From Desulfuromonas sp. (GTDB lineage Bacteria > Desulfobacterota > Desulfuromonadia > Desulfuromonadales > Desulfuromonadaceae): DNA of 33,842 bases. Under the pieces are notes generated by a model, which worked only from the letters and a program-made list of their open reading frames with translations, was not told where the DNA came from and searched no databases. Where the stretch lies: NCBI GenBank assembly GCA_028685815.1, contig JAQUDG010000014.1, forward strand, positions 1 through 33,842, read 5' to 3'. Made by a program: the position numbers and the translations under genes. Positions 4,257 to 33,623 of this stretch are shown here, piece by piece; position 1 is the stretch's first letter; each line of letters starts with the position of its first letter.

Positions 4257-4383
4257 GTATTACACCCTGAAATCCAGCTTCATGATAGAAAATCCATTTT
4301 ACAGGCTCAGCATACTATCAAAATTTCGCCCACTTTACTACGATGGCGCGGAAGATTAAACATCTAAAAACAAACCATAAAAT

Positions 4384-4424
4384 CACAAACGGCGTCGGTT
4401 GCAAGTTAACCGACGCCGTTTGTG
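4384..4424 (-). terminator. Strong hairpin terminator between flgE and motA
   Basis: A perfect 17-bp GC-rich stem (4384-4400 against 4408-4424) encloses a 7-base loop. On the minus strand the right-hand arm is followed by ATTTTATGGTTTGTTTTT, a T-rich tail, so it should stop transcription coming out of flgE. The plus-strand side has only a short T run. Its position about 90 bases after the flgE stop suggests that motA starts a separate transcript. Confidence 0.82.
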
Positions 4425-4513
4425 TAATTTCCTATCCGCTCCGATGATCTTACATCAAGGCATCAGCCCCTTTATGGACTTGGAGCGTGGGATGCCCAAT
4501 GTCAAGAATCTGC

Positions 4514-6055
4514 TTAGCGTTTGAGGTTGATCAACTCGCCTAGAAGCTCATCGGTTGTAGTGATTATCTTCGAGTTGGCCTGAAAACCACGCTGGGTTGT
4601 GATCATCTTCACGAACTCCTGCGCTAGGTCAACGTTAGACATCTCGAGTGAGTTGGTAAATATCTTACCTACCCCAGAACCTACCGTACCTATAACCGGG
4701 GTCCCCGATGCATCACTGGATCCATACATATTATTCCCCACCTTGACCAAACCCAGCGGGTTGGAGAATTTCGCCAAGGCAATCCGAGCCAGCTTGCGCG
4801 GTTCTCCATTGGAGTAGTTGCCTAGAATATTGCCCTCAGTATCGATAGATAAACTCACCAGCATCCCGGTAGCAAAACCGTTCTGACTTTGGGAGATAAC
4901 GTCTGATTCACTCGAATATTGGGTGGCGTCAAAATCAAAAGCAATAAGCTGCCCTGCATTAGACTCGTTGTTCCAAGCCATAGCTCCTTCAAGAGTAGAA
5001 ACTCTTGGCTTCAGAGTTCCGCCTATCTTCTCCTGATCTGTTGTCAATGGATATCTATCAGGATCAGTAATAACGTCCTTAGGTGTCACGTAAAGATTCC
5101 CATTCACATCGAAATCTCTATCAGTAGCAACCAATGCCTGCCATTGCCCATCTATACTAGGGTCAGTGACAGCTGAAAAATCTGTGGTACCATATATGGT
5201 ACCACTTATATCTTTCGTATTAACCAGACGCCCCCCTGTATCAAAGGTGAGGACACTGCGCCCAACCTCGGCCCAATCCTCTGGCCACGCCGTTCCATCC
5301 GCCAAGGTAATCTCGGCCCCAGCTACTACAGTATGCGCTTCCCACTGCATATATCCTTCCGGGTTCCCCGCCGGATCGAGTTTATTAAAGTAAGTGGTCA
5401 CCAGATGTTCGCGCCCGAGGGAGTCAAAAACACGCACTGAGGAAGCATAGTTGCTGGTTTCGGAGGGATCTTTGATGCTAAATGGAGAAATAGGGAGATC
5501 CCCAGTCGTCGCATCAGGCTTGCCTAAAAAAGGAGAATTGGCATTAAGGTTGGTCATGAGGTTAATTTGGCTGGTTCCTCGAGCCGGGGAAAATGATCTA
5601 GTTTCGATCTTTAAACTGGCGACATCACCGATAGTCTCCCCAGTGTCTTCATTTAGATAGTAACCCTGAACGGCATAGCCTTCAGGGCTTACAAGGGTGC
5701 CATCTTCATCAAAATTAAATGCGCCAGCACGGGTGTAGTAGGTTGACCCCACGGTCGGATCACTCACCATGAAAAAACCGGGGCCCTCAATGGCTAAGTC
5801 GGTGTTCGACTCGGTGTTTTCGAAGGTCCCCTGACTAAAGATATTATCCACCGTGGATAATCCTACCCCTCGACCAACTTGGGAGGTACCGCCAGAACCT
5901 GAAATAGAGGCGGACATAAGATCGGAAAACACAGTGCGGCCAGACTTAAACCCGATGGTGTTACTGTTAGCGATGTTGTTACCGATTACGGTCAAGGCGT
6001 TGCCGTTGGCATTTAGGCCGCTGACGCCGCTGTATAATGCACTCTGAATTCCCAT
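4514..6055 (-). CDS. flgE: Flagellar hook protein FlgE
   Basis: FlgE polymerises into the hook that joins rod and filament. The 513-residue product starts with MGIQSALYSGVSGLNANGNA and NNIANSNTIGFKSGR, the N-terminal D0 signature of axial proteins. The middle holds the variable D1/D2 domains. It ends with NSLEMSNVDLAQEFVKMI and TTQRGFQANSK, the C-terminal D0 heptad region. AGGAGG lies about 5 bases before the ATG, a strong site fitting a high-copy structural protein. A 199-base gap separates it from flgD and contains a 7-bp inverted repeat (ACCGCAC/GTGCGGT, near 6203-6237) but no clear promoter. No flbD-like gene follows it. Confidence 0.95.
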   Translation of the reverse strand: MGIQSALYSGVSGLNANGNALTVIGNNIANSNTIGFKSGRTVFSDLMSASISGSGGTSQVGRGVGLSTVDNIFSQGTFENTESNTDLAIEGPGFFMVSDPTVGSTYYTRAGAFNFDEDGTLVSPEGYAVQGYYLNEDTGETIGDVASLKIETRSFSPARGTSQINLMTNLNANSPFLGKPDATTGDLPISPFSIKDPSETSNYASSVRVFDSLGREHLVTTYFNKLDPAGNPEGYMQWEAHTVVAGAEITLADGTAWPEDWAEVGRSVLTFDTGGRLVNTKDISGTIYGTTDFSAVTDPSIDGQWQALVATDRDFDVNGNLYVTPKDVITDPDRYPLTTDQEKIGGTLKPRVSTLEGAMAWNNESNAGQLIAFDFDATQYSSESDVISQSQNGFATGMLVSLSIDTEGNILGNYSNGEPRKLARIALAKFSNPLGLVKVGNNMYGSSDASGTPVIGTVGSGVGKIFTNSLEMSNVDLAQEFVKMITTQRGFQANSKIITTTDELLGELINLKR

Positions 6056-18542: not shown

Positions 18543-18779
18543 CTTATAGCTGCTTGCTAAGACATTAGCGCAGTTTTTAATGCAAAACCACAAAGCATAA
18601 TGAATTGCAGATGCACAAACACTCAAGCCTTAAGTGGCGCTATACTAAAGTAACAATCCACGAGAAAAATTCATTTAACTTGTTTACCTGCGCAGCTGAA
18701 AATACAATGAAAATTCGTATATAGCAAACTTCTGTTCAATCTAATTACTCAATTTCTCAGCCTATTCCGTCCACGTACT

Positions 18780-19577: not shown

Positions 19578-21872
19578 ATGACCGACAATTTGAGCAGCGA
19601 TCAGATAGAGATCATAGTTGACTTCGTTCAAGAAAGTCAGGATATGATCGAACAACTCGAACCCACCATCATCGAACTCGGTCAGGATGCTGACCCTGAG
19701 ACTATCAATGCTGTTTTCCGCCTGTTCCACTCCATGAAGGGCAGCGCCGGATTCCTTGAATTTAACCATATTACCAACGTAGCTCATTCGGCTGAAAACC
19801 TGCTCGACAATGTGCGCTCAGGCAAACTAAAACTCCAACCTGAGCATGTAAACCTCTTGTGCGAATCCTGCGATTTCTCCAAAGAAGCGCTGGAACACGT
19901 GTCAGAAACCTATTCTGACCACGCAATGGCAGACAAGGCCGCCGAGATGGTCGAAAAACTCAAAAACATCATGGATCCGGAGTACAAAGTAACCGACGAG
20001 CCCGATGAAGAGCCTTCTGTTGAGTCCGAGGTCGAGACAGAACCAGAGCCGGAACCCCACCATAATACCGCTGCGGTTATAAAAAATGAAGACGAGACTG
20101 ATGATTACACTCTCGACATTACTGATGAAATGGTGGAGCGCTACATCCAAGAAGCAGAAGAACTCCTTGAAGGTGCCGAGGGAGGGTTACTTGAGTGGGA
20201 GAGTGCTCCGGACAACACCGAGACCTTAAATCTTGTTTTCCGCAACATCCATAGTTTCAAGGGAAACAGCGGTTTTTTTGGCTACGCGAACCTTGAACAA
20301 CTCAGCCATAACATCGAAAACGTGCTCGACAATATCAAAAATGGTGGCTCTTTCAGGGTCGAGAATCCTTTCGAGATTCTTCTTAGTGCCATTGATGCCC
20401 TCAAAGACTGCGTAAGCAACCTTGCTAGCCACGGTGGCAAAGACCACATCGAAGGGTTGGAACACCACGTAGAGGCGCTACAGGAGCTCCCATCTCCTCG
20501 CCTAGGTGAACTTCTAGTGAAGCAGGGCCTCATCAAGGAAGAAGATGTGGAATCGGTCCTCTCAATTCAGCAGAAACCGCTGGGGGAACACCTGATACAG
20601 ATGGGCAAGGTCTCACATGAACAAATAGCCGAAAGTGTGAAGCTCCAGCATTCTGAAAAAAAAACTATTAAACCGCCGGAGCGTAAACCAACCAAAGCCA
20701 CTACACCGACTAAACGCCAAGATATCCGCGTTGACCTTACAAAGCTCGATAGCCTGATAAACCTTATCGGTGAAATGGTGATCGCTGAAAACATGCTGAT
20801 TCATAACCCTGATATAGAGGGAATGGAGCTTGAAAACTTCAACAAAGCAGCTCAGCAGATGACCAAACTGGTGCGCGAACTCCAAGAGATGGCCATGGTT
20901 ATCCGCATGATTCCGATCTCGGGATTGTTTCGCCGCATGATCCGCCTCGTACACGATATATCAGCCAAAGCAGGCAAAAAAGTTGACCTGAAACTTTTTG
21001 GCGAAGGAACCGAGGTAGATAAAACTGTTATTGAAACCATCACTGACCCCTTAGTGCACCTACTGCGGAACTCCATGGACCATGGACTAGAGCCGCCTAA
21101 AGAGCGCGTGGAGACAGGCAAAAGCGAAACCGGAATCCTCAAACTTTCCGCGTGCCATGAGGAAGGCGAAGTATGGATAACCATCGAAGATGACGGGCGC
21201 GGGCTTAATCGAGAAAAAATTCTGTCGAAAGCGATCCAAAATGGCATGATTGAGGGCGATGGCTCAGACCTACCAGACAAATATGTGTACAACCTCATAT
21301 TCCAGCCTGGATTTTCTACTGCTGATAAAATCACCGACATTTCAGGTCGTGGTGTAGGGATGGACGTAGTCAAGCAGAATTTGGAGAAGATTAAAGGCAA
21401 GATCGACGTCACCAGCGCCCCCGGCAAGGGAACCATCGTGAAACTGCGAATTCCCCTGACCCTGGCCATAATAGATGGGATGCTGGTTCGGGTCGGCGAC
21501 GTCAACTGCATTGTGCCAGTACTGGCAATACGGGAAGCATTCCGTCCTCAAGCTGACAACATCACCATCACCCCTGACAACGAGGAGCTGGTGCGGGTGC
21601 GTGAAGCGTTCCTGCCGGTGGTCAAACTCCACGAACTTCTTAGCGTAGAACCTGACAGTCGCGAGCTGATAGAGGGTATCTTGATCGTACTTGAACATCA
21701 GGACCGCTTTGTTTGCCTACAGGTCGATGAAATCATGGGACAGCAGCAGACCGTTATTAAAGGTCTGTCGGAATATATCGGCAGTGTCAACGGCTGCTCC
21801 GGTTGCACAATTCTCGGCAATGGCGATATCTGCCTGATTCTGGATGTTGGCGGTCTCGTTGAAAGACAGTAA
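19578..21872 (+). CDS. cheA: Chemotaxis histidine kinase CheA with two HPt domains and a MshEN-like insert
   Basis: CheA autophosphorylates and passes phosphate to CheY and CheB. The 764-residue product has a first HPt domain (LFHSMKGSAGFLEF, His51), an acidic linker, and a second HPt domain (NIHSFKGNSGFFGY, His225). Then come two tandem 24-residue motifs at 308-331 and 334-357 (RLGELLVKQG... and PLGEHLIQMG...) that resemble the MshE/type II secretion ATPase N-terminal (MshEN) c-di-GMP motif. The dimerisation domain follows (about 384-460), then the HATPase domain (N box LLRNSMDHGLE, EDDGRG, GRGVGMDVV) and a CheW-like coupling domain to the end. I see no clear P2 CheY-binding domain. The ATG has only a weak AAGAG site. 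It leads the cheARBD run, with cheR starting 19 bases on. Confidence 0.95.
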   Translation: MTDNLSSDQIEIIVDFVQESQDMIEQLEPTIIELGQDADPETINAVFRLFHSMKGSAGFLEFNHITNVAHSAENLLDNVRSGKLKLQPEHVNLLCESCDFSKEALEHVSETYSDHAMADKAAEMVEKLKNIMDPEYKVTDEPDEEPSVESEVETEPEPEPHHNTAAVIKNEDETDDYTLDITDEMVERYIQEAEELLEGAEGGLLEWESAPDNTETLNLVFRNIHSFKGNSGFFGYANLEQLSHNIENVLDNIKNGGSFRVENPFEILLSAIDALKDCVSNLASHGGKDHIEGLEHHVEALQELPSPRLGELLVKQGLIKEEDVESVLSIQQKPLGEHLIQMGKVSHEQIAESVKLQHSEKKTIKPPERKPTKATTPTKRQDIRVDLTKLDSLINLIGEMVIAENMLIHNPDIEGMELENFNKAAQQMTKLVRELQEMAMVIRMIPISGLFRRMIRLVHDISAKAGKKVDLKLFGEGTEVDKTVIETITDPLVHLLRNSMDHGLEPPKERVETGKSETGILKLSACHEEGEVWITIEDDGRGLNREKILSKAIQNGMIEGDGSDLPDKYVYNLIFQPGFSTADKITDISGRGVGMDVVKQNLEKIKGKIDVTSAPGKGTIVKLRIPLTLAIIDGMLVRVGDVNCIVPVLAIREAFRPQADNITITPDNEELVRVREAFLPVVKLHELLSVEPDSRELIEGILIVLEHQDRFVCLQVDEIMGQQQTVIKGLSEYIGSVNGCSGCTILGNGDICLILDVGGLVERQ

Positions 21873-21890: not shown

Positions 21891-22760
21891 ATGAAAGCTG
21901 ATCTTCGCGGCTCTGCCATAGCCAGCGGTAGCATGATGAGCATCAGCGACAGTGAGTTCGACTCTCTGCGCGAGATGATATATACCCGCTTCGGCATCAA
22001 CCTGACAGAGCAGAAGCGTTCTCTACTGGTGGGTCGATTGCAGAAAATGCTGCGCACCCACAAGATAGAAACCTTTGAGGATTACTACCGCTATCTGGAG
22101 AAAGACACCAGTGGCAAAGCGGTAAGTGACCTCATCAACCTGATCTCCACCAACTACACCTATTTCAACCGCGAAAAGGATCACTTCGACTACTTTTTAA
22201 ACACAGCTTTGCCCCATGTATGTGAAGAAATAAAAAAGCGAGGGGAAAAAAACCTACGCGTCTGGTGCGCCGGTTGCTCCAGCGGTGAAGAGGCGTACAC
22301 CCTGCAGATGCTCATGCATGAGTACCTTGGCCCTGAATACAGTCGCTGGGATGCCGGTCTATTGGCAACGGACATTTCGCAGCGCGTGCTCGATACCGCA
22401 CTTGAAGGGATTTATCCGGCAGACAAGGTTGCATCTCTGCCGGAAAATCTGCAGCGCAAGTACTTTACCCGCCTCCCCTCTGGACAGATGCAGGTAAACA
22501 GCAAAATACGTTCACAAGTTACATTCAGGCGCTTCAACCTTATGAACACTAAGTTCCCGTTCAAGCGCCCGTTTCATATAATCTTCTGCCGGAATGTAAT
22601 GATCTATTTTGATCTGGCCACCCGCAATGCGTTAGTGCAAAGGTTTCATCAATTCCTGGAACCCAAAGGGTATTTCTTTATTGGACATTCTGAAACACTC
22701 GGGCGCGACAGCAAACTGTATAACTATATCTTACCCGCAGTGTACCAAAAGGGGAGCTAA
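21891..22760 (+). CDS. cheR: Chemoreceptor glutamate methyltransferase CheR
   Basis: CheR transfers methyl groups from S-adenosylmethionine to receptor glutamates for adaptation. The 289-residue product has an N-terminal helical domain (FDSLREMIYTRFGINLTEQK, LVGRLQKMLR) and a C-terminal SAM-binding domain with RVWCAGCSSGEEAYTL, ATDIS, and FHIIFCRNVMIYFD, ending GYFFIGHSETL. All the usual motifs are intact. A later in-frame ATG could serve as start, since the first 15-18 residues are not family-typical. It lies 19 bases after cheA and 6 before cheB. Confidence 0.95.
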   Translation: MKADLRGSAIASGSMMSISDSEFDSLREMIYTRFGINLTEQKRSLLVGRLQKMLRTHKIETFEDYYRYLEKDTSGKAVSDLINLISTNYTYFNREKDHFDYFLNTALPHVCEEIKKRGEKNLRVWCAGCSSGEEAYTLQMLMHEYLGPEYSRWDAGLLATDISQRVLDTALEGIYPADKVASLPENLQRKYFTRLPSGQMQVNSKIRSQVTFRRFNLMNTKFPFKRPFHIIFCRNVMIYFDLATRNALVQRFHQFLEPKGYFFIGHSETLGRDSKLYNYILPAVYQKGS

Positions 22761-22766
22761 CCATCT

Positions 22767-23822
22767 ATGTCCAGAAAAATTCGTGTCCTCGTAATTGACG
22801 ACTCTGCCCTCATCCGCCAGATCCTCACCCAAGGTCTTTCTCTAGATCCGGAGATTGAGGTGGTTGGGTCTGCTATCGATCCGTATATTGCACGCGATAA
22901 AATCATCCAACTGCGTCCCGATGTCCTCACTCTAGACGTAGAGATGCCGCGCATGGATGGGGTAGAATTTCTGCGCAAGCTGATGCCGCAGTACCCCCTC
23001 CCCGTGGTTATGGTTAGCTCTCTGACCCAGCGCGGCAAACAGATAACCATGGAAGCCCTAGAGGCAGGTGCGGTGGATTTTGTATCCAAGCCCACCAGCA
23101 ATGTCGCCCACGGGATGAACAGCATGCTCAGCGAATTGCGCAAGAAGGTTAAAAATGCAGCAGGTGCCAATGTCTCTCACTGGAAAAATAGAACTCCGTT
23201 GCAGCCAAACGCGCAAACCCTCCTGACAACAAGAGCTCTAGCCGAATCCACCGACAAGGTGATTGCCATCGGAGCCTCCACCGGGGGAACCGAAGCGATA
23301 AAGAAGGTGGTGTGTCAGTTCCCCGCCACCATGCCAGGAGTGGTGATTGTTCAGCACATGCCGCCAGGTTTCACCAAAATGTTTTCTGAGCGTCTAAATC
23401 AGCTCTGCGCTATGGAAGTCAAGGAAGCTGAGACCGGAGACCGTATCCGCAGTGGCAGAATTCTGGTTGCTCCGGGGGCAAAACAGCTTGAGGTTGTGCG
23501 ATCGGGCGGAGTGTACCAGGTACGCTGTGAACCGGGCGAGAAGGTAAGTGGTCACTGCCCATCGGTAGATGTTATGATGCACTCGGTGGCTAAACACGTT
23601 GGAGCCAATGCCATCGGTGTCATGCTCACCGGTATGGGTTCAGACGGCGCCGATGGGATGTTGGCCATGAAAAATGCCGGAGCACGCAACATGGCCCAGG
23701 ATGAGGCCAGCTGTGTAGTTTTTGGTATGCCCAAGGTAGCCTTCGAGAGAGGGGGAGCGGAAAAACTGGTTCCTCTGGATAAAATCGCCCCAAAAGTCAT
23801 TTCCATGTTAACGGAGAAATAA
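22767..23822 (+). CDS. cheB: Chemotaxis methylesterase/deamidase CheB
   Basis: CheB removes methyl groups from receptors (or deamidates them) when phosphorylated by CheA. The 351-residue product has an N-terminal receiver with Asp11, Asp12 and phospho-acceptor Asp57, then a linker and a C-terminal esterase domain. The catalytic triad is visible as Ser171 (GASTGGTEAI), His197 (VQHMPPGF) and Asp293 (GMGSDGADGM). Together with cheR and cheD it gives a full adaptation set, although no receptor gene lies in this window. GGGGAG lies upstream within the cheR end. Confidence 0.96.
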   Translation: MSRKIRVLVIDDSALIRQILTQGLSLDPEIEVVGSAIDPYIARDKIIQLRPDVLTLDVEMPRMDGVEFLRKLMPQYPLPVVMVSSLTQRGKQITMEALEAGAVDFVSKPTSNVAHGMNSMLSELRKKVKNAAGANVSHWKNRTPLQPNAQTLLTTRALAESTDKVIAIGASTGGTEAIKKVVCQFPATMPGVVIVQHMPPGFTKMFSERLNQLCAMEVKEAETGDRIRSGRILVAPGAKQLEVVRSGGVYQVRCEPGEKVSGHCPSVDVMMHSVAKHVGANAIGVMLTGMGSDGADGMLAMKNAGARNMAQDEASCVVFGMPKVAFERGGAEKLVPLDKIAPKVISMLTEK

Positions 23823-23828
23823 AAGACC

Positions 23829-24317
23829 ATGGGCAATATTATCCTCGGGGTGGGTGAACTTGGCGCCACCAACAACCCCGCTGACTGTGTCAAAACCTTT
23901 GCACTTGGATCATGCGTGGCGGTGATACTCATGTGTCCAAAAACCCGCACTGTCGGCATGGTTCACGTCGCGTTACCAGAATCTAGGATTAATCCAGAAA
24001 AAGTTAAAACCAGGCCAGGATACTTTGCCGACACTGGCATCCCCGCGCTACTGAAAAAAATGTCCACCTTCGGGTGTGACCCAAACGGCAGGGGTTTTAT
24101 TGTAAAACTGGCTGGTGGCGCCAGAATCATGGACCCAAACAACACCTTCAATATCGGCAAACGCAATGCATTAGCTGTTAAAAAAACCCTATGGAAGTTT
24201 TCCCTCGGGGCTGTTGCAGAGGATTTGGGAGAAACATACAGCAGAACAGTTACCGTCTCCGTGGCATCAGGTGAAACCCTGATAACCTCGCCAGGACGCA
24301 AGGACTGGAAGATTTAA
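23829..24317 (+). CDS. cheD: Chemoreceptor glutamine deamidase CheD
   Basis: CheD deamidates receptor glutamines and, in CheC/CheX systems, is regulated by binding to a CheC-type phosphatase. The 162-residue product has the catalytic cysteine in FALGSCVAV (Cys29), histidine in GMVHVALP (His46) and a threonine at position 23, matching the Cys-His-Thr arrangement of the family. It starts 6 bases after cheB with GGAG about 12 bases upstream. Its presence next to five CheX/CheC-like domains makes a CheD-phosphatase link worth considering, but CheX itself is not known to bind CheD. Confidence 0.95.
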   Translation: MGNIILGVGELGATNNPADCVKTFALGSCVAVILMCPKTRTVGMVHVALPESRINPEKVKTRPGYFADTGIPALLKKMSTFGCDPNGRGFIVKLAGGARIMDPNNTFNIGKRNALAVKKTLWKFSLGAVAEDLGETYSRTVTVSVASGETLITSPGRKDWKI

Positions 24318-24333
24318 ACTAATGGAGAAGACC

Positions 24334-25212
24334 ATGGAACAACGTGCTACGCGCGCTGACATTCTCGCGGCAATAAAAGAGATTCCTCTGCTCTCTCCCA
24401 GTGCCTCGCGTCTGCTTCAGATAGCCTCTAGAGACGACTACAATATTGACGAAATAATTGAGGTAGTCAAATGCGACTCAGCTCTGACCGCCCGCTTGCT
24501 TAAAACAGTCAATTCAGTAGCTTACGGCTTGGTACATCAAGTGACCAGTATCGAGCGTGCAGTTAGCTACCTGGGTGAACGTCTTGTTGCCGGCATTGCT
24601 CTTGAAGACAGCGCGAAAGCGGTGTTTAACAAAAAACTCGAAGGCTACGAAAGCCCCGTTGGCGAGTTATGGGAGCATGATTTGCGCACTGCCGTAGCGG
24701 CGCGCGAAATAGCCCGCCATTCCAATACAGACCTTAGCAAGGATCTGGCCTTTACCGCAGGCATTCTACACGCCATAGGCAAAGCAGTCCTCAGTGATTT
24801 TCTGCACGAATCCGCCCCAGACCTGCTGGCCAATATAGACAGTCACGATATTAGAGACTACCTTGAGGGGGAGCGGAAGATACTGGGGATGGATCATGCC
24901 GAAGCCGGCTTTGAGCTTGCTAAAGCTTGGGAGCTGCCCGAGTCGCTACAAATGGCTATACGCCATCACCACACACCGCAGCAGGCTCCAGAACAATACC
25001 GGCCCTTGGTATACGCAGTCCATCTTGGATGTATTATAGCCATGATGTCAGGCAGTCAATCTTCAGATGCTCTGCAATATCACCTCGACAAAGATTATAG
25101 CGATTATTTTAATATCACCAATGAACACATTGCCATGATATTGCTTGAAGTGAATGAAAGTGTAGAAACGATCCAGGCTGCACTTACTGAAGGCAGGGAG
25201 CAAGCAGAATGA
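24334..25212 (+). CDS. HDOD domain protein
   Basis: HDOD domains are HD-like folds, usually lacking enzyme residues, found in signalling proteins. The 292-residue product has the HDOD core throughout: IKEIPLLSPSASRLLQIA near the start, IIEVVKCDSALTARLLKTVNS, SIERAVSYLGERLV and AFTAGILHAIGKAVLSDFL. I chose ATG 24334 because GGAG sits 6 bases upstream; an ATG at 24322 has no good site. It lies in the chemotaxis operon after cheD and its stop overlaps the following receiver gene by 4 bases (ATGA), indicating tight coupling with that receiver. Its function in chemotaxis is unknown. Confidence 0.9.
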   Translation: MEQRATRADILAAIKEIPLLSPSASRLLQIASRDDYNIDEIIEVVKCDSALTARLLKTVNSVAYGLVHQVTSIERAVSYLGERLVAGIALEDSAKAVFNKKLEGYESPVGELWEHDLRTAVAAREIARHSNTDLSKDLAFTAGILHAIGKAVLSDFLHESAPDLLANIDSHDIRDYLEGERKILGMDHAEAGFELAKAWELPESLQMAIRHHHTPQQAPEQYRPLVYAVHLGCIIAMMSGSQSSDALQYHLDKDYSDYFNITNEHIAMILLEVNESVETIQAALTEGREQAE

Positions 25213-25583
25213 AGCGTATCATAATAGCCGATGACTCGGGTACAGCGCGCATGATGATAAGGCGCTGCCTTGAAATTATAGGTTTTAATGAAACTATATT
25301 TGAAGAGGCGAAAGACGGGCGTGAAGCCCTAGCCTTGATGAAGAAAAATCCGCCCGACCTTTTAGTCAGCGACCTTAACATGCCAAGCATGGATGGGGAA
25401 ACCCTGCTGCAATGGGTCAAGGCCAGCCCCAAACTGGTCAACATTCCGGTCTTGATAATATCCAGCGTCACCAACCCGGCTAAAACCGCCGAACTTAAGA
25501 AAAAAGGTGCTTTTGCAGTTATCGGCAAGCCAATAAATCCGGCACTGCTCAATGAGGCTCTTGCCCCGCTCTTACCGGAATAG
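25209..25583 (+). CDS. Stand-alone receiver (CheY-like) protein coupled to the HDOD gene
   Basis: The 124-residue product is a single receiver domain with Asp8/Asp9, phospho-acceptor Asp55 (LLVSDLNMPSMDG) and the C-terminal lysine in VIGKPINPALLNEAL. Its sequence differs from the second stand-alone receiver in this cluster (26129-26500), especially after the lysine. The gene overlaps the HDOD gene by 4 bases and is followed 13 bases later by a CheX-like gene. A likely reading is a phosphate sink, or a signal output read by the HDOD protein or removed by the CheX protein, but this is inference. Confidence 0.9.
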   Translation: MKRIIIADDSGTARMMIRRCLEIIGFNETIFEEAKDGREALALMKKNPPDLLVSDLNMPSMDGETLLQWVKASPKLVNIPVLIISSVTNPAKTAELKKKGAFAVIGKPINPALLNEALAPLLPE

Positions 25584-25596
25584 AAAGGCTATCACC

Positions 25597-26088
25597 ATGG
25601 CTAAACTCCAAAAACTGCTGGCCGCAACACTCGCGAAAGTAATCGACGAGACGCTAGAGAACATGGCCTTTATTAGCACAGAAGAGGTGGACACCGAACA
25701 AGCGCCTCTTGAGCTTGAGAACATGCGCGCAGTGTGCCTCTTGATAACTGCACCCGTAGTGATGGAGATTCGCCTAGGTATGGCAGAAGAACTGCTGCAC
25801 CAAATAGTCGAAACCATGTACACCATTGACGCTGATGATATCACGCAGGAGCAGATTGCTGATGTCCTAGCAGAAACCCTCAATACCCTGGCCGGATGCC
25901 TTATGACTGAATTGCTCCCAGCAGACCAGGCTTTTTCTTTAAGCCTACCGGAAGCAGTAACAGATGACCTGAGCACTGCGGACGACAACACCATCTTTGC
26001 GACACAGTACATGGCCGATGACTTACCCATAAGTGTCAAAATAAGCGCCGCTGCTACAGAAGAGCTTGAAAAGATACTCAAAATCTGA
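25597..26088 (+). CDS. CheX-like phosphatase (first copy, divergent)
   Basis: The 163-residue protein fits the CheX/CheC-like fold in length and has an ExxN motif at Glu93-Asn96 inside LAETLNTLAGCLMTELL, the type used by CheX to remove phosphate from CheY. It also has the trailing strand QYMADDLPISVKISAA. Outside this motif it differs strongly from the other two small CheX-like genes. I chose ATG 25597 because it follows AAAGG; a longer frame would overlap the receiver gene. It sits between two receivers, so either could be its substrate. Confidence 0.72.
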   Translation: MAKLQKLLAATLAKVIDETLENMAFISTEEVDTEQAPLELENMRAVCLLITAPVVMEIRLGMAEELLHQIVETMYTIDADDITQEQIADVLAETLNTLAGCLMTELLPADQAFSLSLPEAVTDDLSTADDNTIFATQYMADDLPISVKISAAATEELEKILKI

Positions 26089-26128
26089 GCAACATATCCA
26101 TTTAACCTGCTATCACAAGGAGAATCCC

Positions 26129-26500
26129 ATGGGCAAGCGTGTATTAATCATAGATGATTCCAGCACTATGCGAAAAATTGTATCCCGTTCACTACGTCAG
26201 GCCGGACTGGACTTTGACGAAATTCTGGAAGCAGCTGACGGGCAGGAAGCCCTTGACCTGCTGAAAACAGAAAAGGTTGATCTAATCCTCAGTGATATAA
26301 ATATGCCCAATATGGACGGGATGGAGTTTTTACGTCAAAAAAGGGAGATCGACGCCATTAAAGATATCCCCGTGGTGATGATAACAACCGAAGGTGGAGC
26401 TGACATTATTGGCGAAGCAAAAGAACTCGGTGCAGCTGGTAGCGTGAAGAAACCGTTTAAGCCAGAAACCATCAGTGATGTACTTGGCGCGTTGATTTAA
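26129..26500 (+). CDS. cheY: Chemotaxis response regulator CheY
   Basis: CheY-P binds FliM to change motor rotation. The 123-residue product has all the key residues: Asp9/Asp10, phospho-acceptor Asp56 (LILSDINMPNMDGMEFL), the Thr pair in VVMITTEGG and Lys108 in VKKPFKPE. It is closer to canonical CheY than the other stand-alone receiver. AAGGAG lies 7 bases before the ATG at 26129; a longer frame upstream overlaps the previous gene and is rejected. About 100 bases without an obvious terminator separate it from the next CheX gene. Confidence 0.92.
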   Translation: MGKRVLIIDDSSTMRKIVSRSLRQAGLDFDEILEAADGQEALDLLKTEKVDLILSDINMPNMDGMEFLRQKREIDAIKDIPVVMITTEGGADIIGEAKELGAAGSVKKPFKPETISDVLGALI

Positions 26501-26599
26501 TCTGACCCGTCTGATTTCAGTCCGAAATTGGCCAAACCACAACAGTGACATTTCCCTGTACGCAATCAGACTTGAATCTATGACCGCAGGAGACCTCCA

Positions 26600-27055
26600 G
26601 TGGAACTACAAAAACACATTACCGATGCAACAACTGAAATATTTGAAACTATGATTATGTTGGAGATCTCCGCCGGCGATCCCGTGGTAGAGAAAATAAA
26701 TAATTTTAAATGTTCAGTTTCTGGCGTTATTGGCTTAGCCGGCACCTGCAAGGGAATACTTGCCATCCACCTGCCCGATAAGGTCGCCATGTCCATTACC
26801 GGCAGCTTTCTGGGAATGGAAGTAACTGAAGTGGATGACGATGTAACTGATGCCATTGGTGAGCTAGCCAACATGGTGGCGGGCAACATAAAAATGATAC
26901 TGGATGAAGCGGGAAAAGACGTAACCCTCTCCATCCCTTCCTGCGTACATGGGGCTGAATACACTTTGGACACCGCCGCAGACTGCGAACGGGTGGTAGT
27001 TCCTTTTAACCTCGAAAGCGGCCAGTTTCTCGTGGAACTCCAGGTAAAAAACTAA
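26600..27055 (+). CDS. CheX-like phosphatase (second copy)
   Basis: The 151-residue product matches CheX well: EIFETMIMLEI near the start, GVIGLAGTCKGILAIHLPD, then DAIGELANMVAGNIKMIL with the ExxN residues Glu88 and Asn91, and the C-terminal strand FLVELQVK. CheX dephosphorylates CheY-P. The start is a GTG at 26600 with AGGAG about 8 bases upstream. It shares clear sequence similarity with the next gene (27136-27603), which points to a local duplication. Confidence 0.9.
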   Translation: MELQKHITDATTEIFETMIMLEISAGDPVVEKINNFKCSVSGVIGLAGTCKGILAIHLPDKVAMSITGSFLGMEVTEVDDDVTDAIGELANMVAGNIKMILDEAGKDVTLSIPSCVHGAEYTLDTAADCERVVVPFNLESGQFLVELQVKN

Positions 27056-27122
27056 TTAAGCGGTAAAACCCGCATAGATAGCCACGTCTCAGATGCATTA
27101 AGTAAAACAAGCGCCGCTTAAT
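27055..27122. repeat. 9-bp inverted repeat spanning the gap between two CheX genes
   Basis: ATTAAGCGG (27055-27063) pairs with CCGCTTAAT (27114-27122) around a loop of about 50 bases. The first arm begins at the stop of one CheX gene and the second ends just before the ribosome site of the next. The RNA could close into a stem that influences the second gene, but a loop of that size makes a simple terminator unlikely. Confidence 0.55.
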
Positions 27123-27135
27123 ACAGGAGTCCATA

Positions 27136-27603
27136 TTGGAAAACAACCTACAGCAACAGATTATCAATGCCACCCAGGCGGTATTCGATACCATGTTGAT
27201 GTTGCCCGTGACATCCGGAGTGGCACTCCCGGATAAAGTGTACCTTTTCAATGACAGCATATCCGGAATGTTGGGTTTTTCCGGAGACGTGCAGGGGATG
27301 CTGACTATTCACTGCCCGCAGCAAATAGCCTTTTGCATTACCGGACAACTTCTAGGGATGGAAGTCGACGGTATGGATGAGGATGTTAAGGACACTATAG
27401 GCGAAATGGCCAACATGATCCTGGGAGGCATTAAAGATGCGTTCCTCGAACGGGGAACAGACATCAGTCTGGCTGTCCCCACCGTCATGTCTGGACGCTC
27501 ATATCGAGTTAAAACAGTGGATTACGCCTCATGGACTACCGTTCCATTCTATCTTGACGATGGCGAATTTCTAGTTGAATTAAAACTCAAAACCTTGGAC
27601 TAG
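27136..27603 (+). CDS. CheX-like phosphatase (third copy)
   Basis: The 155-residue product parallels its upstream neighbour across the whole length: AVFDTMLMLPVT, GMLGFSGDVQGMLTIHCP, DTIGEMANMILGGIKDAFL with ExxN residues Glu90 and Asn93, and FLVELKLKTL at the end. The start is a TTG at 27136 with AGGAG about 7 bases upstream; no ATG lies nearby without cutting the first helix. The pair probably arose by tandem duplication and may now act on different receivers. Confidence 0.88.
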   Translation: MENNLQQQIINATQAVFDTMLMLPVTSGVALPDKVYLFNDSISGMLGFSGDVQGMLTIHCPQQIAFCITGQLLGMEVDGMDEDVKDTIGEMANMILGGIKDAFLERGTDISLAVPTVMSGRSYRVKTVDYASWTTVPFYLDDGEFLVELKLKTLD

Positions 27604-27614
27604 CAGGTACTCTT

Positions 27615-29522
27615 GTGGCAGATAAAGCAGTCGTTGATCGTGTCTTCAACGCCATTATCGAACAAACATCTGAAGAAGTTGGCGCTTTGCTCGACGCCAA
27701 TATTGTACTTGACGAGCACCAGACCAAGCTGCTGAACAAGAACCAGATTTTTGAAATAAAACGCAGCCGCTCCATCCTAAGCACCATGAAAATCAGTGGA
27801 GACCAAGAAGGTAATGCCTTTATAATTACCGCCCAAAAAGACTCCATCACTCTAGGAGGCACACTGATCATGCTGCCTCCCGATCAAATCGAAGAAAACC
27901 AGAAACAACGCATATTTGGAGGTGAAGCGGCAGACGCCTTTGGAGAAGTGGCTAACATTATTGCCGGCGTATACACCTCTGTATTTTTGGAGATGTATCC
28001 AAAAAAACTCCATTTTAAGCGTACTGATGTAAACGAGTTTATCCCGACCAAACTTGACCCAGAAGCCGACCTCCCCTTCCCTCCTGGGGTATACTTTTAC
28101 TCCAGCTGTTCAGTAAAACTTGAGAACCGGAGCTTGGAAAAGCTGGAGGTAATTGTTCCGGCACATATCTTTGGGTTGGCCCCACCACCCGAAACAGCGG
28201 AAACGGTCCAGCTGGAAGGCGCAACAACAAAAGAAGAGGACGATGCAGAAGAGATTGTAGCTGCCCCCCCTAGTAGCAGTCCTCCGAGTGCAGAGGCTAC
28301 TCCAGTTACCGAGAAGGGTCCCCAAGAACCAGAAGCTGAACCAGAAGCTGAAGAAACAAACTATATCGAACTGTCCGTAGTCGATCGAGTCCTCAAGGCC
28401 GCCATTACCCAGTGCGCCGAAGAGATCGGCACCATACTAGACATCGAAATAGAGTTAAGCACCATGAGCACCGGTTATGTTTCCAAGGAGGAGTACTTTG
28501 CTAGGCCCGGGCCTAAGTCTACCGTAACTGAAATGGAAGTAAGTGGAGATCGTGCGGGGATCTCCTACTTCATTGCCGACCTTAAAGATTCCATTTATTT
28601 TGGCGGTACCTTGGTGATGTTGCCCGAGGATGAACTCTCAAGCAGAATGACGTCCGGTGAGCTTGATGGTGAAATAGAGGATGCTTTTGGCGAAGTTGCC
28701 AACATAATCAGCGGCGGGATCGTACAGAATTTTGCTGAAATGTTCCCCCGCAAGTTTCATGTAAAAAAAGGCAACGTTGAAGCTTTTACCCCCACCAAGG
28801 TAATGATAGAAAGCCCCAAACCATTTCCAGACGCAGAATATTATAGCGTAAGTGTCAGCATGGACTGCGATACTCACGATCTGGGGCACTTAACCTACCT
28901 TGTTCCGGTAGAGTTGCTGCATCTCCCCCCAAGACCAGAACAAACTAGTTGGGGAGCATCCGCAGGTGACGAAACAACACAAAAACCGCAGACCCTTGAA
29001 ACCCCAGGCAAACCACAGAGCGGCGCTGCAAGCAAAGAAAAGACCACGCTAGAATCCGCTACTACATCAGAAAAGACTACGCCGGGGAACTCCTCAGCTC
29101 AGACCCATACTTCTAAGAGCGCAGATGCTAAAACAGCGCCCAACGAAGAAGCCAAAGAAGAGGTCGTAGCCGTTGTGTACCAAGACATCTCTGCCGCAGA
29201 GCCATATACCGTGATTCTTGGAGAATTTGGGCATAAACCGGTGCCACTGGCAGCGCACGAAAGCTTCAACTCCCTACGCCAAAATAGAGTATGTGGATCC
29301 CTGCTGATCCTCAGCAAAATTGACGACGACGCCTTTGCCCTCATAATAAAGATTCGCTCCGAAACTCCAGCAAGCCAGCCACTTATAGTCGCCGGATCAG
29401 CCTGGACTCGAAGTGCAGTGTTAAAAGCCGTCAGATACGGAGTTAATGACATCATCCCAACTCCAGCCTCTGACGATGAAATCCGTGCCAAGTTACAGCA
29501 CAATCTGAAAAATTCTTGCTAA
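27615..29522 (+). CDS. Dual CheX-like protein with C-terminal pseudo-receiver
   Basis: I know no named family with this layout. The 635-residue product has two similar units of about 185 residues. Each begins VVDRVxxAAI/FNAI...EE(I/V)G and carries AFGEVANII, giving ExxN pairs at Glu111-Asn114 and Glu360-Asn363, as in CheX/CheC. The units are joined by an acidic Pro/Glu-rich linker (about 190-250). A Thr/Ser/Lys-rich linker (about 440-525) leads to a receiver-like fold (531-635: YTVILGEFG, SLLILSKI, PLIVAG, AVRYGVNDIIPTPAS) that lacks the acidic pair and a clear phospho-acceptor Asp. The start is a GTG with a weak site. It sits 11 bases after the third CheX gene and before a sigma-54 activator that also has a pseudo-receiver. 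Confidence 0.8.
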   Translation: MADKAVVDRVFNAIIEQTSEEVGALLDANIVLDEHQTKLLNKNQIFEIKRSRSILSTMKISGDQEGNAFIITAQKDSITLGGTLIMLPPDQIEENQKQRIFGGEAADAFGEVANIIAGVYTSVFLEMYPKKLHFKRTDVNEFIPTKLDPEADLPFPPGVYFYSSCSVKLENRSLEKLEVIVPAHIFGLAPPPETAETVQLEGATTKEEDDAEEIVAAPPSSSPPSAEATPVTEKGPQEPEAEPEAEETNYIELSVVDRVLKAAITQCAEEIGTILDIEIELSTMSTGYVSKEEYFARPGPKSTVTEMEVSGDRAGISYFIADLKDSIYFGGTLVMLPEDELSSRMTSGELDGEIEDAFGEVANIISGGIVQNFAEMFPRKFHVKKGNVEAFTPTKVMIESPKPFPDAEYYSVSVSMDCDTHDLGHLTYLVPVELLHLPPRPEQTSWGASAGDETTQKPQTLETPGKPQSGAASKEKTTLESATTSEKTTPGNSSAQTHTSKSADAKTAPNEEAKEEVVAVVYQDISAAEPYTVILGEFGHKPVPLAAHESFNSLRQNRVCGSLLILSKIDDDAFALIIKIRSETPASQPLIVAGSAWTRSAVLKAVRYGVNDIIPTPASDDEIRAKLQHNLKNSC

Positions 29523-29604: not shown

Positions 29605-30984
29605 TTGGCTGAATCTGTTCTGCTGAATATCAATAATGTTATTGAGCCTCAGTTGCTTGAGTTTTTAACTCAACAGCTTGGCGGCGCATTGCATCTAGCG
29701 CAGACTGCCGAACAAGCCCGCGATATTATACGCCGCCGCACAATAAAACTTTTCCTGTGCTCCCTTGGGGTAAACACACTCGAATACGCAGCTTTGCTTA
29801 AAGCGGTAAAAACCATATCGCCTGATACAGTTATCATCCTCATCGTGCCACAATCCTCCCAGGCCCCCATCAACGAGATCCTGCAAATCGGGGCACATTT
29901 TTATCTGCATGTGCCATGCAACAACGCCGAAGCTGCCGAAATCATTCAACGAGCTGAACTACATTGCAAAACCCTTAGGGCCACTAATCCTGAAAACCAG
30001 AGACCAGTAATCGATTTCCCAGGAATTATTGGCAAGAACCCGATGATGCAGCAGCTCTTTAATACAATCCGACTCCTAGCAGATGACAGCGACAGCACCA
30101 TTCTGATTCATGGCGATAGTGGCACCGGCAAAGAATTGGTTGCGCGGGCAGTACACAGCAACAGTCCTAGAAAACATAACAACTTCGTCCCCATCAACTG
30201 TGCGGCTATCCCTGAAGAACTCCTAGAAAGTGAACTATTCGGACATGTAAAAGGTTCTTTTACCGGTGCCACCGCTAACAAAAAAGGCCGACTACACCAC
30301 GCAGATGGGGGAACTTTATTTTTGGACGAAATTGGAGATATGAAACCACTGCTCCAAGCCAAAATTTTGCGCGTAATCCAGGAAAAAGAGTTTGAACCTG
30401 TAGGGAGTGTAAAAAGTGTAAAAATAGACGTCAGAATTGTTGCGGCCACCCATCGCAATCTAGAAGAGGCCATAAAAGATGGAACGTTCCGCGAAGATCT
30501 CTATTACCGCCTCAACGTTGTTCCGTTACATATTCCCGCACTGCATCAGCGTCGTGATGATATCGCTCTCTTGCTAGACACCTTTACCGAACGCTTTTGT
30601 CACAGCAAAAAAAGACCGGTGTTCAGCTTTGCCCAAAGTACTATAGAGTGCTTGCAGCAATATCCTTGGCCAGGAAACGTCAGAGAACTCGAAAATCTGG
30701 TACAACGTTTGTCCATTCTGCACACCGGTAAAATCGTATTCCCCGATGATCTACCGGAAAAATATCTGCACTCATCCAGCGACACTACACTTAACCCAGA
30801 CAGCAAAAATGGCAAAACGGATTTCAACATTCAAGTGAGTGAATTCGAGGATCGCCTTATATTACAGGCTCTTATGAAGACCGGCGGCAACAAAAAAGAA
30901 GCCGCACAACTGCTGAACCTCAAACGCACGACCTTGCTAGAAAAAATCAAGAAAAAGCGCCTTGGCAAGAGCCATAACAAATAA
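29605..30984 (+). CDS. Sigma-54-dependent activator with degenerate receiver
   Basis: The 459-residue protein is a bacterial enhancer-binding protein. Its N-terminal 120 residues have a receiver-like pattern but lack the Asp pair and have Ser53 around the expected phospho-acceptor (KLFLCSLG), so phosphorylation is unlikely. The AAA+ domain has Walker A GDSGTGKE (170-177), GSFTGA (217-222) for sigma-54 contact, Walker B LFLDEIGD and arginine-finger FREDLYYRLNV. A Fis-type helix-turn-helix ends the protein (NKKEAAQLLNLKRTTLLEKI). The start is a TTG at 29605 with a poor ribosome site. Position and the sigma-54 promoter at 18780-18795 suggest a flagellar regulator, but the target is inferred. Confidence 0.88.
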   Translation: MAESVLLNINNVIEPQLLEFLTQQLGGALHLAQTAEQARDIIRRRTIKLFLCSLGVNTLEYAALLKAVKTISPDTVIILIVPQSSQAPINEILQIGAHFYLHVPCNNAEAAEIIQRAELHCKTLRATNPENQRPVIDFPGIIGKNPMMQQLFNTIRLLADDSDSTILIHGDSGTGKELVARAVHSNSPRKHNNFVPINCAAIPEELLESELFGHVKGSFTGATANKKGRLHHADGGTLFLDEIGDMKPLLQAKILRVIQEKEFEPVGSVKSVKIDVRIVAATHRNLEEAIKDGTFREDLYYRLNVVPLHIPALHQRRDDIALLLDTFTERFCHSKKRPVFSFAQSTIECLQQYPWPGNVRELENLVQRLSILHTGKIVFPDDLPEKYLHSSSDTTLNPDSKNGKTDFNIQVSEFEDRLILQALMKTGGNKKEAAQLLNLKRTTLLEKIKKKRLGKSHNK

Positions 30985-31143: not shown

Positions 31144-31969
31144 GAATACAACTCGTAGGTGCAACTCTAAAAACTAGGTTTGAAGGATAAGCTGCGGTAG
31201 GCTCACGGCTTCTTTCACCGACCAAAGTTAGAGGAGCACGATGAGTCACTACACGCAGCTTACCCGAGAGGAACGATGCCAGATTTCTGTTTTTCAAACA
31301 GCCGGTTAATCGAAGACTCAAATTGCTAATCTCCTTGGCCGTCATAAGTCCACCATTGACCGGGAAATGGCACGCAATTGTGGCCAGAGAGGCTATCGCC
31401 CAAACCAAGCTGATAATTGCCGGCGCCAAAGCAAAGTGACTCAACGCATTAATCGCCAGAACTGGTAACGCGTTGAGCATTTACTCCGCGAGTATTGGAG
31501 CCCAGAACAAATCAGTTACTGGCTGCGACAAGAAGAAAGCATCCACGTCAGTCCAGAGTGGAGCGTAAGACCCGCTGGAGTATAATCGACAAAGCTTGCA
31601 ACCGAACAGCAAAAGAGGTCAAGGCCGTCATTGTGCGGAAGTTATTGCCGTTGGCCTCATATGTGGAGACGCTCACCTACGACAACGGCAAAGAATTTGC
31701 GCTGCATCAGGATATTGACAAAGAACTTCAGTCCAATGGTTACTTCGCACATCCCTACCATTCGTGGGAGCGCGGTCTGAATGAGAACACCAACGGGCTT
31801 ATTCGCCAATTCTTTCCGAAAGGAAAAGTTCTTACTGAAGTGACTGACGAAGAAATCCAGGGAGTGATGGATAAAATCAACAATCGCTCCAGGAAATGTC
31901 TTGGCTTCAAAACGCCTAATCAGGTATTTTTTGGAATCAACCCAACGGTTGCACTTACGACTTGAATCC
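31144..31969 (+). mobile_element. Degenerate, internally deleted IS30-family insertion sequence
   Basis: Imperfect terminal inverted repeats bound the element: 31144-31165 and the reverse complement of 31948-31969 agree at about 18 of 22 positions, with the core TCGTA[A/G]GTGCAAC. The element is only about 826 bases, shorter than the usual 1.0-1.2 kb of IS30 relatives, and its transposase is broken. The left repeat lies about 160 bases past the sigma-54 activator. I cannot see a convincing target-site duplication. Confidence 0.75.
31241..31965 (+). pseudogene. Broken IS30-family transposase
   Basis: Reading from 31241 gives an IS30 N-terminus, MSHYTQLTREERCQISVF, with a helix-turn-helix (KTQIANLLGRHKSTIDREM), but TAA stops interrupt it at 31307-31309 and 31466-31468. 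The reading continues to ISYWLRQEESIHVSPEW. At about 31558 it jumps to a different frame, VERKTRWSII, with a missing stretch of roughly 80-90 residues that would hold the first catalytic Asp. The C-terminal part is well kept: VETLTYDNGKEFALH, YFAHPYHSWERGLNENTNGL, RKCLGFKTPNQVFFG. It cannot make an active enzyme. Confidence 0.85.
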
Positions 31970-32638: not shown

Positions 32639-32660
32639 GGGGTCAAGTCTGCCTTTGACC
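32639..32660. repeat. Left RAYT terminal hairpin
   Basis: GGTCAA and TTGACC form a 6-bp stem around gtctgcct. The TGA stop of the transposase gene (32643-32645) lies inside this hairpin, so the last few codons are encoded by the terminal sequence itself. Confidence 0.7.
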
Positions 32661-33623
32661 AATTTTAAGTTTTGAACAAATTTTCTTGTATAGTTTTTGC
32701 ACCTTCGCCTCACTATCCAACGCTTTTTTCATGCGCTCAATTGCAGAACTAACGGTGCTATAGTTCTCGCATCCGATTACATTGCCAATTTCAGCAAGCG
32801 TTCTTTGGCTATGTGCTCTGAGTGTATAAACAGCTAAGTCTCTTGAAAGGTTGGTAACGCCCCGTCTGGCGGTGGTTAACTCCTCTTCAGTGACCTGACA
32901 CACCTCACAAACTGCTTTGATCACTGCAGTAGCATCGACAGCGAAAACCTCTCTCCCTGCAATCTCTTTATCCTTAAGTAAAAATTCGCACCTGTTTCTT
33001 ACCTTTTTTATAAATCCTTCAGAACCAAATATCGACGGAAGATTTTTACGTGAAAAAAATTGCTGCACCTCTTCAGAATCCTGCTGATTCACAAAGGAGA
33101 GATAATTTATAAAAGCTGTTTTTCTTGTTGATGAAAACATATTCAACAGTGGCTCGCGCTGCAACCACTGCCATCGTCTTTCGTCAGCAAGATAACCTAG
33201 ATGACTACTCCATTTATACGCTTCCAACTCTGAAACTATACAGGCCTCGATAGGGTTCCGGTGGATATAGCGTAATAGTTCCAACAAATGGCTATCCTCT
33301 TCGACCAACACAGCTTTGTAGCGGCCACGGAACAATTGGCCGTCAGTGCTGTGTCTGCGATTATAACGCTGGGTGTAAACTCCGTTAAGATGGCGCATAC
33401 AACGAGACAGGTTACCGTCCGGTGTTTGCACTAATAAATGATAATGATTTGACACCAGACAATAGGCAGAGACGTTTAAGTTCCACATCTTTGCTGTGTC
33501 TTGTAATACGTTCAGGAACAGTAAGTAATCCTCTTCGTCCTGACAAATGTCCTCTCGCCGTCGCCCACGATTCATTACGTGATACCAGGCACCGGGATAT
33601 TCTATGCGTAATGGTCTCGACAT
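32643..33623 (-). CDS. RAYT (REP-associated tyrosine) transposase with DnaA-like C-terminus
   Basis: The 326-residue protein belongs to the Y1/HUH single-strand transposases. It starts MSRPLRIEYPGAWYHVMNRG, typical of RAYTs. His60-Tyr-His62 (SNHYHLLVQT) is the metal-binding HUH pair, and Tyr119 in RYIHRNP is the likely catalytic tyrosine. Residues about 230-320 form a helical domain like the C-terminal DnaA DNA-binding domain (SRDLAVYTLRAHSQRTLAEIG, CENYSTVSSAIERM). All the catalytic residues are present, so it may be active. GAGG lies about 12 bases before the ATG, a long spacing. It presumably acts on the flanking hairpins. Confidence 0.92.
   Translation of the reverse strand: MSRPLRIEYPGAWYHVMNRGRRREDICQDEEDYLLFLNVLQDTAKMWNLNVSAYCLVSNHYHLLVQTPDGNLSRCMRHLNGVYTQRYNRRHSTDGQLFRGRYKAVLVEEDSHLLELLRYIHRNPIEACIVSELEAYKWSSHLGYLADERRWQWLQREPLLNMFSSTRKTAFINYLSFVNQQDSEEVQQFFSRKNLPSIFGSEGFIKKVRNRCEFLLKDKEIAGREVFAVDATAVIKAVCEVCQVTEEELTTARRGVTNLSRDLAVYTLRAHSQRTLAEIGNVIGCENYSTVSSAIERMKKALDSEAKVQKLYKKICSKLKIGQRQT

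What the first reader, a model, noticed from the sequence alone, without database searches (positions are those of the whole stretch)
25597..29522. Five CheX/CheC-type ExxN phosphatase domains in four adjacent genes
Three small CheX-like genes and a 635-residue protein with two further ExxN units lie in a run with two stand-alone receivers. The ExxN residues are visible in each (ETLN, ELAN, EMAN, EVAN, EVAN). One or two CheX proteins are usual in a chemotaxis cluster. No cheW, receptor or cheZ is present here, so the cluster seems weighted toward phosphate removal or signal sorting. Distinct domains may serve distinct receivers (CheY, the HDOD-linked receiver, CheB) or may have lost enzyme activity and act as sensors.
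Basis: partly seen in the sequence, partly recalled or inferred. Interest (0 to 1): 0.7.

Follow-up and report, generated by a model that had tools for sequence, protein, structure and literature searches.

The report
Conserved five-site chemotaxis phosphatase cluster
A flagellar chemotaxis gene cluster carries five off-switch (phosphatase) domains in four neighbouring genes, and this is a long-conserved arrangement in its bacterial order, in which one protein appears to have doubled its phosphatase domain several separate times.

Summary
In detail: three small CheX-family genes (ETLN, ELAN, EMAN) and a 635-residue protein with two more ExxN units (EVAN, EVAN) lie in one cheA-to-sigma54 run beside flagellar genes. 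It is not a local oddity. The same gene order with all five units occurs in 25 of 40 neighbourhoods read from related genomes, and class-level outgroups keep a triad, cheY-cheX-(ExxN unit + receiver-like domain), near flgB. ExxN Glu and Asn are retained in 33/33, 41/41 and 29/29 rows of the small genes and in 107 of 109 units of the large protein's family; both exceptions are the halves of one protein whose locus lost cheY and both cheX genes. The large protein is not a CheX duplicate: its units are CheC/FliY-sized with one ExxN each, followed by a receiver-like domain without phospho-Asp. In three families (f7, f8, f9) its halves are each other's nearest kin, so the tandem arose repeatedly or was homogenised; the window's own family is unresolved. 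The first CheX-like gene and its neighbouring receiver always occur together (33 both, 12 neither, 0 one). Best reading: dedicated phosphatases for separate receivers plus a bivalent CheY-P phosphatase. Activity is untested.

The parts
25209..25583 (+). RR1: stand-alone receiver (124 aa), complete phosphorylation site (D8, D9, D55, K107)
   Evidence: Pfam Response_reg 77.9 bits; D55 34/34, K107 34/34 in orthologues
25597..26088 (+). X1: divergent CheX-family protein, ExxN = ETLN (E93, N96)
   Evidence: PF13690 34.3 bits over cut-off; E93 33/33, N96 33/33; profile match to X2 E 1.7e-8 over 139 columns
26129..26500 (+). CheY, complete phosphorylation site (D9, D10, D56, T87, K108)
   Evidence: Pfam Response_reg 98 bits; these positions 41/41
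26600..27055 (+). X2: canonical CheX, ExxN = ELAN (E88, N91)
   Evidence: PF13690 91.4 bits; solved CheX/CheC-domain relatives to 3.3e-21; E and N 41/41
27136..27603 (+). X3: canonical CheX, ExxN = EMAN (E90, N93), TTG start behind AGGAG
   Evidence: PF13690 79.4 bits; profile hits CheX structures to 6.1e-29; E and N 29/29
27615..29522 (+). DUAL: 635-aa protein, ExxN unit + linker + ExxN unit + linker + receiver-like domain
   Evidence: ORF; PF13690 and PF04509 hits; homologues in 204 of 277 genomes of the class
27615..28184 (+). DUAL unit N, CheC/FliY-like with a single ExxN (EVAN)
   Evidence: ExxN conserved in 44 of 45 N units, the exception being L114
28371..28937 (+). DUAL unit C, CheC/FliY-like with a single ExxN (EVAN)
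   Evidence: 44 of 45 C units; low-confidence model whose best fold matches are CheC-like, CheX, FliM, FliY
29145..29519 (+). DUAL receiver-like domain without phospho-Asp; invariant W-T and V, A, G, P positions
   Evidence: 12 of 28 members hit Response_reg; best solved relative by profile PleD 8.4e-10; alignment with CheY and RR1
19578..21872 (+). CheA (two Hpt stretches, kinase core, CheW domain), first gene of the run
   Evidence: gene order
21891..22760 (+). CheR
22767..23822 (+). CheB
23829..24317 (+). CheD
24322..25212 (+). HDOD protein
29605..30984 (+). sigma-54 activator (AAA+, Fis-type HTH, weak N-terminal receiver match)
   Evidence: same strand in f1 and f16 neighbourhoods, opposite strand in most others

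Best explanation
This is the flagellar chemotaxis operon of a bacterium of an order rich in such operons, with four dedicated dephosphorylating proteins in place of CheZ or FliY. CheA would phosphorylate CheY, RR1 and CheB. X2 and X3 are ordinary CheX proteins that would remove phosphate from CheY-P by putting the Glu and Asn of ExxN into its active site (mechanism recalled from CheX/CheC work, not shown here). X1 is a specialised CheX-family partner of RR1. The 635-aa protein is a bivalent member of the CheC/FliY/FliM fold group with one ExxN site per unit; its receiver-like domain lacks the phospho-acceptor and most likely docks or regulates the protein. Shown: domains, order, conservation, co-occurrence, tree pattern. 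Inferred: enzyme activity, which receiver each domain serves, and what the receiver-like domain binds.
For: Domains. Catalytic pair retained: X1 33/33, X2 41/41, X3 29/29, DUAL-family units 107/109. Both exceptions (N to K, N to D) are the halves of the protein in L114, whose locus lacks cheY, X2 and X3 and whose genome (100% complete) has no PF13690 match, unlike two relatives of the same family code that keep cheY, X2, X3 and both sites. No CheZ; FliM with a CheY-docking-like N-terminus (motif recalled) and a FliN in a 118-aa frame, so no FliY. In the class-level outgroup only cheY, X2 and the single-unit form remain, within about 3 kb of flgB-flgC-fliF. RR1 and X1 are found together in 33 loci, neither in 12, one alone in 0, of 45.
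Against: No biochemical data. The fold model of the DUAL unit is weak (pLDDT 57.3, best Foldseek E 1.3e-3, best Z 6.1) and that of X1 failed (pLDDT 40). X1 and DUAL are far from any assayed phosphatase. RR1 and X1 are neighbours, so a single deletion could remove both; independent co-losses are few (inside f9 and inside f18, perhaps f15). The decay case is one genome, and G290 of that family code also has no PF13690 match but was not examined further.
Confidence: 0.58

Rival explanations
1. The 635-aa protein is mainly a regulator, not an enzyme: like CheC toward CheD, its units bind CheY-P and CheD and tune receptor deamidation, and the receiver-like domain is the docking part.
For: cheD is in the operon; the unit profile matches CheC and FliY better than CheX by sequence and in the second-look structure ranking.
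Against: The single-unit form occurs without cheD nearby in the five outgroup loci and the tandem form without cheD nearby in the f39 loci L112-L114. The Asn of ExxN is nearly as conserved as the Glu, 107 and 109 of 109.
Confidence: 0.2
2. Tandem units descend from one old duplication, and the halves were later made alike in each family by gene conversion.
For: Also gives the N-with-C pairing seen in f7, f8 and f9; f1, f10 and f39 halves do not pair with support.
Against: Inside f1, f7, f8, f9 and f16 the N and C clades stay apart, so no conversion is seen after the origin of each family; the neighbouring duplicates X2 and X3 show no such homogenisation; single-unit families lie among tandem ones in the operon tree.
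Confidence: 0.3
3. Plain redundancy: five interchangeable phosphatase sites kept for dose, with no division of labour.
For: All five carry the same catalytic pair; 12 of 297 genomes of the phylum sample have five or more PF13690 matches (counted by eye).
Against: X1 is a separate clade from X2 and X3 with 100/100 support, and X2 is coherent in 31 of 32 rows; X1 follows RR1 and not CheY.
Confidence: 0.15

Closest known systems
CheX (Pfam PF13690; Thermotoga maritima 1xko, Borrelia 3hzh)
   Same: X2 and X3: length, one ExxN, whole-domain profile match
   Different: Two copies side by side plus a divergent third (X1); no assay
CheC / FliY (1xkr, 2f9z, 4hyn)
   Same: DUAL units: length near 190 aa, best sequence-profile matches and high structure ranking
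   Different: One ExxN per unit instead of two; no FliN domain; receiver-like C-terminal domain
Desulfuromonas AOP6_0888-0878 and BQ4888_RS06735-06680 clusters (PMC8235581, section 7 read)
   Same: cheX, cheC, cheD, cheA, cheB, cheR and no mcp, next to flagellar genes, in genomes counted with three cheX; called a unique type there
   Different: Described as containing cheW; no domain analysis, tandem units or receiver-like domain in that section. That it is the same cluster is my inference
Geobacter alpha-group che cluster (PMC2577667, passages read)
   Same: che genes with an HD-domain gene and no mcp
   Different: Described with cheW, only in Geobacteraceae, and not close to flagellar genes; one cheX per genome reported

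Membership tests
CheX (X1, X2, X3) | PF13690 match over the curated cut-off | tested here: met
   34.3, 91.4, 79.4 bits against 27
CheX (X1, X2, X3) | one conserved ExxN | tested here: met
   33/33, 41/41, 29/29
CheX (X1) | CheX fold | tested here: inconclusive
   model failed, pLDDT 40; profile match to X2 only
CheX | CheY-P phosphatase activity, dimer | not testable with these tools
   needs purified protein
CheC (DUAL units) | CheC-like fold | tested here: inconclusive
   the top 29 Foldseek rows are CheC-like, CheX, FliY or FliM, but E 1.3e-3 at best, TM-scores at most 0.42 in these rows, model pLDDT 57; Z at most 6.1
CheC (DUAL units) | two ExxN sites per unit | tested here: not met
   one ExxN per unit; no ExxN in the first helix of either unit of the window protein (sequence; weak alignment to CheC)
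FliY | C-terminal FliN domain | tested here: not met
   the only two FliMN_C matches of the genome are at window 738-950 and 1081-1293, in FliN and FliM
Receiver domain (DUAL C-terminus) | homology to receivers | tested here: met
   12 of 28 members match PF00072 (the window's own does not at E 0.01); profile hits PleD 8.4e-10
Receiver domain (DUAL C-terminus) | phospho-acceptor Asp | tested here: not met
   the column of CheY D56 holds no conserved Asp in the 41 DUAL-family rows, as I read the alignment by eye
Geobacter alpha-group cluster | cheW in the cluster | tested here: not met
   cheA and cheR are 18 bases apart here and no other CheW match lies on this contig than CheA's own; present in 14 of 31 relatives

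The most novel reading that the evidence does not exclude
The 635-aa protein represents an undescribed class of CheC-family phosphatase, (one-site unit)-(one-site unit)-(phosphate-blind receiver), that became bivalent by separate tandem duplications in at least three lineages, repeatedly rebuilding within one chain the two active sites that CheC has natively and CheX gets by dimerising; its receiver-like domain positions it at the flagellar switch or on its own units, and the cluster pairs each receiver with its own phosphatase.
Probability: 0.4. Interest if true: 0.68.

Novelty: new variant of a known kind. Interest (0 to 1): 0.5.

Why it matters
It gives a natural system in which several receivers share one operon and seem to have their own phosphatases, so cross-talk control by dephosphorylation, usually studied on the kinase side, can be tested directly. 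The recurrent doubling of one unit, with both sites kept, suggests that two linked ExxN sites matter for function. The genome in which both sites decayed after loss of cheY and cheX from the locus is a ready-made comparison.

Tried and rejected
Considered and rejected: (1) five degenerate sensor domains: rejected because the catalytic pair is conserved. (2) DUAL as a duplicated CheX: units are longer and match CheC/FliY/FliM better. (3) DUAL as FliY: no FliN domain, ordinary FliM and FliN present in the window. (4) One old duplication inherited cleanly: all N as one clade and all C as one clade rejected, AU p 5.7e-16 and 2.3e-5 on 56 rows, 1.7e-5 and 9.4e-5 on 78 rows. N and C were fixed by position beforehand, but the tests were chosen after seeing the tree.

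Results against my reading: for the window's own family (f1) the halves do not join in the tree; holding them together is not rejected either (p 0.169). f10 and f39 are unresolved and f16 is weak (95/61; 93/58). Within-protein N-to-C identity in f1 (34.9%) is no higher than across families. hhalign of DUAL units to X2 covers only 40 columns. DUAL units against Pfam one by one: 22 of 36 members reach CheX at E 0.01, and the window's unit C alone is under the cut-off (20 bits). Sigma-54 promoter pattern: 15 matches against 22.5 expected, so nothing. The structure job for X1 gave nothing usable. No fold search was run for X1 or the receiver-like domain.

Rows dropped: trees left out near-duplicate loci (six; nine; 12 tandem proteins and one partial single form). 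L101 and L103 were left out of the RR1/X1 count for lack of operon context; L105 repeats L052's place. In L050, X1 was first hidden by an overlapping frame and recovered by profile. Neighbourhoods are 40 picked by me, mostly one to a few per genus, out of 204 genomes with a match, so 25 of 40 is not a random-sample frequency.
Full report
What is there. The window carries, on the + strand, cheA (19578-21872), cheR, cheB, cheD, an HDOD gene, a stand-alone receiver (RR1, 25209-25583), X1 (25597-26088), cheY (26129-26500), X2 (26600-27055), X3 (27136-27603), the 635-aa gene (DUAL, 27615-29522) and a sigma-54 activator (29605-30984); upstream on the - strand are flagellar genes including fliF, flgC, flgB, fliM and fliN. 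CheX (PF13690) is reached over its cut-off by X1, X2, X3 and DUAL. The genome has no CheZ match, 9 CheW-domain and 11 MCP-domain matches, a CheC-like match on another contig and one further weak CheX match on another contig.

Each ExxN unit spans about 190 residues. The profile of 36 such units finds FliY (4hyn, 3.4e-4) and CheC (1xkr, 2f9z, 0.006) before CheX (0.14). A model of unit C built from four sequences is weak (pLDDT 57.3), yet the 29 best Foldseek rows are all CheC-like, CheX, FliY or FliM, and the second look ranks FliM (Z 6.1) and FliY (5.7) over CheC (4.4) and CheX (3.0). CheC has two ExxN sites per chain (recalled); these units have one each. The last 125 residues are receiver-like: 12 of 28 relatives reach Response_reg and the profile finds PleD at 8.4e-10, but the phospho-Asp column holds no conserved Asp, and W-T, V, A, G, P are invariant instead.

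How common it is. DUAL homologues occur in 204 of 277 genomes of the class. Of 40 neighbourhoods that I chose across families, 25 have cheA-cheR-cheB-cheD-HDOD-RR1-X1-cheY-X2-X3-DUAL with the tandem form; 26 have the tandem form and 14 a single-unit form of about 350-400 aa. In the five class-level outgroup loci only cheY-X2-single form remains of the cluster, followed in L061 by a TPR-type gene and flgB-flgC on the same strand. Strong X1 matches (E 2.5e-42 or better) are in 75 of 136 genomes of the order. In a second class three genomes (family code f39) have the tandem form. In a phylum-wide sample 170 of 297 genomes have a CheX match and 12 have five or more, counted by eye.

Are the sites alive? 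Glu and Asn of ExxN are kept in 33/33 X1, 41/41 X2 and 29/29 X3 rows and in 107 of 109 units of DUAL and its single-unit kin (45 N, 45 C, 19 single). The two exceptions are both halves of one protein (L114, genome G327): Asn became Lys in one and Asp in the other. In that locus cheY, X2 and X3 are missing between cheA and DUAL, and the genome, given as 100% complete, has no PF13690 match, whereas G547 and G362 of the same family code have 3 and 4. This is one case, but it is what one expects if the sites act on the CheY of the cluster.

Sorting. RR1 and X1 are both present in 33 loci and both absent in 12 of 45; none has one alone. Four of the 12 (L048 and L102 in f9, L052 in f15, L104 in f18) still have HDOD, CheD, CheY and X2, while relatives inside f9 and f18 have both. 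The other eight (five outgroup loci and three of f39) lack HDOD and CheD nearby too. This points to X1 as the partner of RR1, with the caution that neighbours can be deleted together.

History of the tandem. With 30 tandem proteins and 18 single ones, the N and C halves are sister clades inside f7 (98/94), f8 (98/94, 15+15 rows), f9 (98/92) and, weakly, f16 (95/61); f1, which holds the window, and f10 are unresolved. Adding f39 leaves this unchanged for f7, f8 and f9. Holding all N halves or all C halves as one clade is rejected. The neighbouring gene pair X2/X3, in the same operons, shows one old split instead (X2 coherent in 31 of 32 rows), so the pattern is not a general effect in these operons. 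In the operon tree, tandem and single states need at least two changes, with f9 beside single-unit families (100/99). Within each family the N and C clades stay apart, so repeated duplication on family stems is simpler than repeated conversion, but I cannot exclude conversion.

What is known. PMC8235581 (section 7 read) reports, for two Desulfuromonas strains, a cluster upstream of the flagellar genes with cheX, cheC and cheD (three cheX in each genome), calls it a unique type and leaves its function open. PMC2577667 (passages read) describes Geobacter clusters and one cheX per genome. PMC3543383 (section 18 read) places a che system among flagellar genes of Pelobacter carbinolicus. PMC10542144 (passages) mentions CheA-CheC/CheX fusions in Leptospirae. 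The tandem unit plus receiver-like architecture, its spread, and the RR1/X1 pairing did not appear in the search listings; most subscription papers, including the 2008 review of CheC-type phosphatases (not held), could not be read, so this is not a claim that it is unpublished.

Verdict. Real, conserved, and a new variant of a known kind rather than a new kind. The surprise is less the number five than the separate history of the large protein and the pairing of X1 with RR1.

Noticed in passing
window 19578-21872 (CheA residues 308-355): CheA carries a stretch over the cut-off of the NCBIfam model for MshE-type cyclic-di-GMP-binding domains (44.7 bits, cut-off 38), seen by eye in many but not all orthologues. 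A possible second-messenger input to the kinase.
   Followed up: partly
window 29605-30984: The sigma-54 activator's N-terminal receiver match is weak (20.9 bits, under cut-off) and the usual phospho-Asp seems absent by eye.
   Followed up: no
L114 (genome G327): Flagellar-linked locus that lost cheY, X2 and X3; both ExxN sites of its tandem protein lost the Asn.
   Followed up: partly
L101 (genome G087) 4140-5520: Single-unit form next to an X3-like remnant with no cheA, cheY or X2 found in the 18 kb read; a broken or rearranged cluster.
   Followed up: no
L006 3000-3162: The closest named relative (MAG labelled Geobacteraceae bacterium) has its tandem protein's frame disrupted near the C-terminus, by mutation or assembly error.
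   Followed up: no
window 15939-18626: An 895-aa TPR gene stands between flgB and cheA; a TPR gene keeps this place in many neighbourhoods and lies between the single-unit form and flgB in the outgroup locus L061.
   Followed up: partly
window 32643-33623: By eye a transposase of the REP-associated/IS200-like kind (recalled, no family search run); 31495-31965 looks like an integrase remnant but has no Pfam hit.
   Followed up: no
L040 5815-6315 and 13 other loci: A cheW-like gene lies in the cluster in 14 of 31 relatives but not in f1, f7, f10, f16 or L058.
   Followed up: yes
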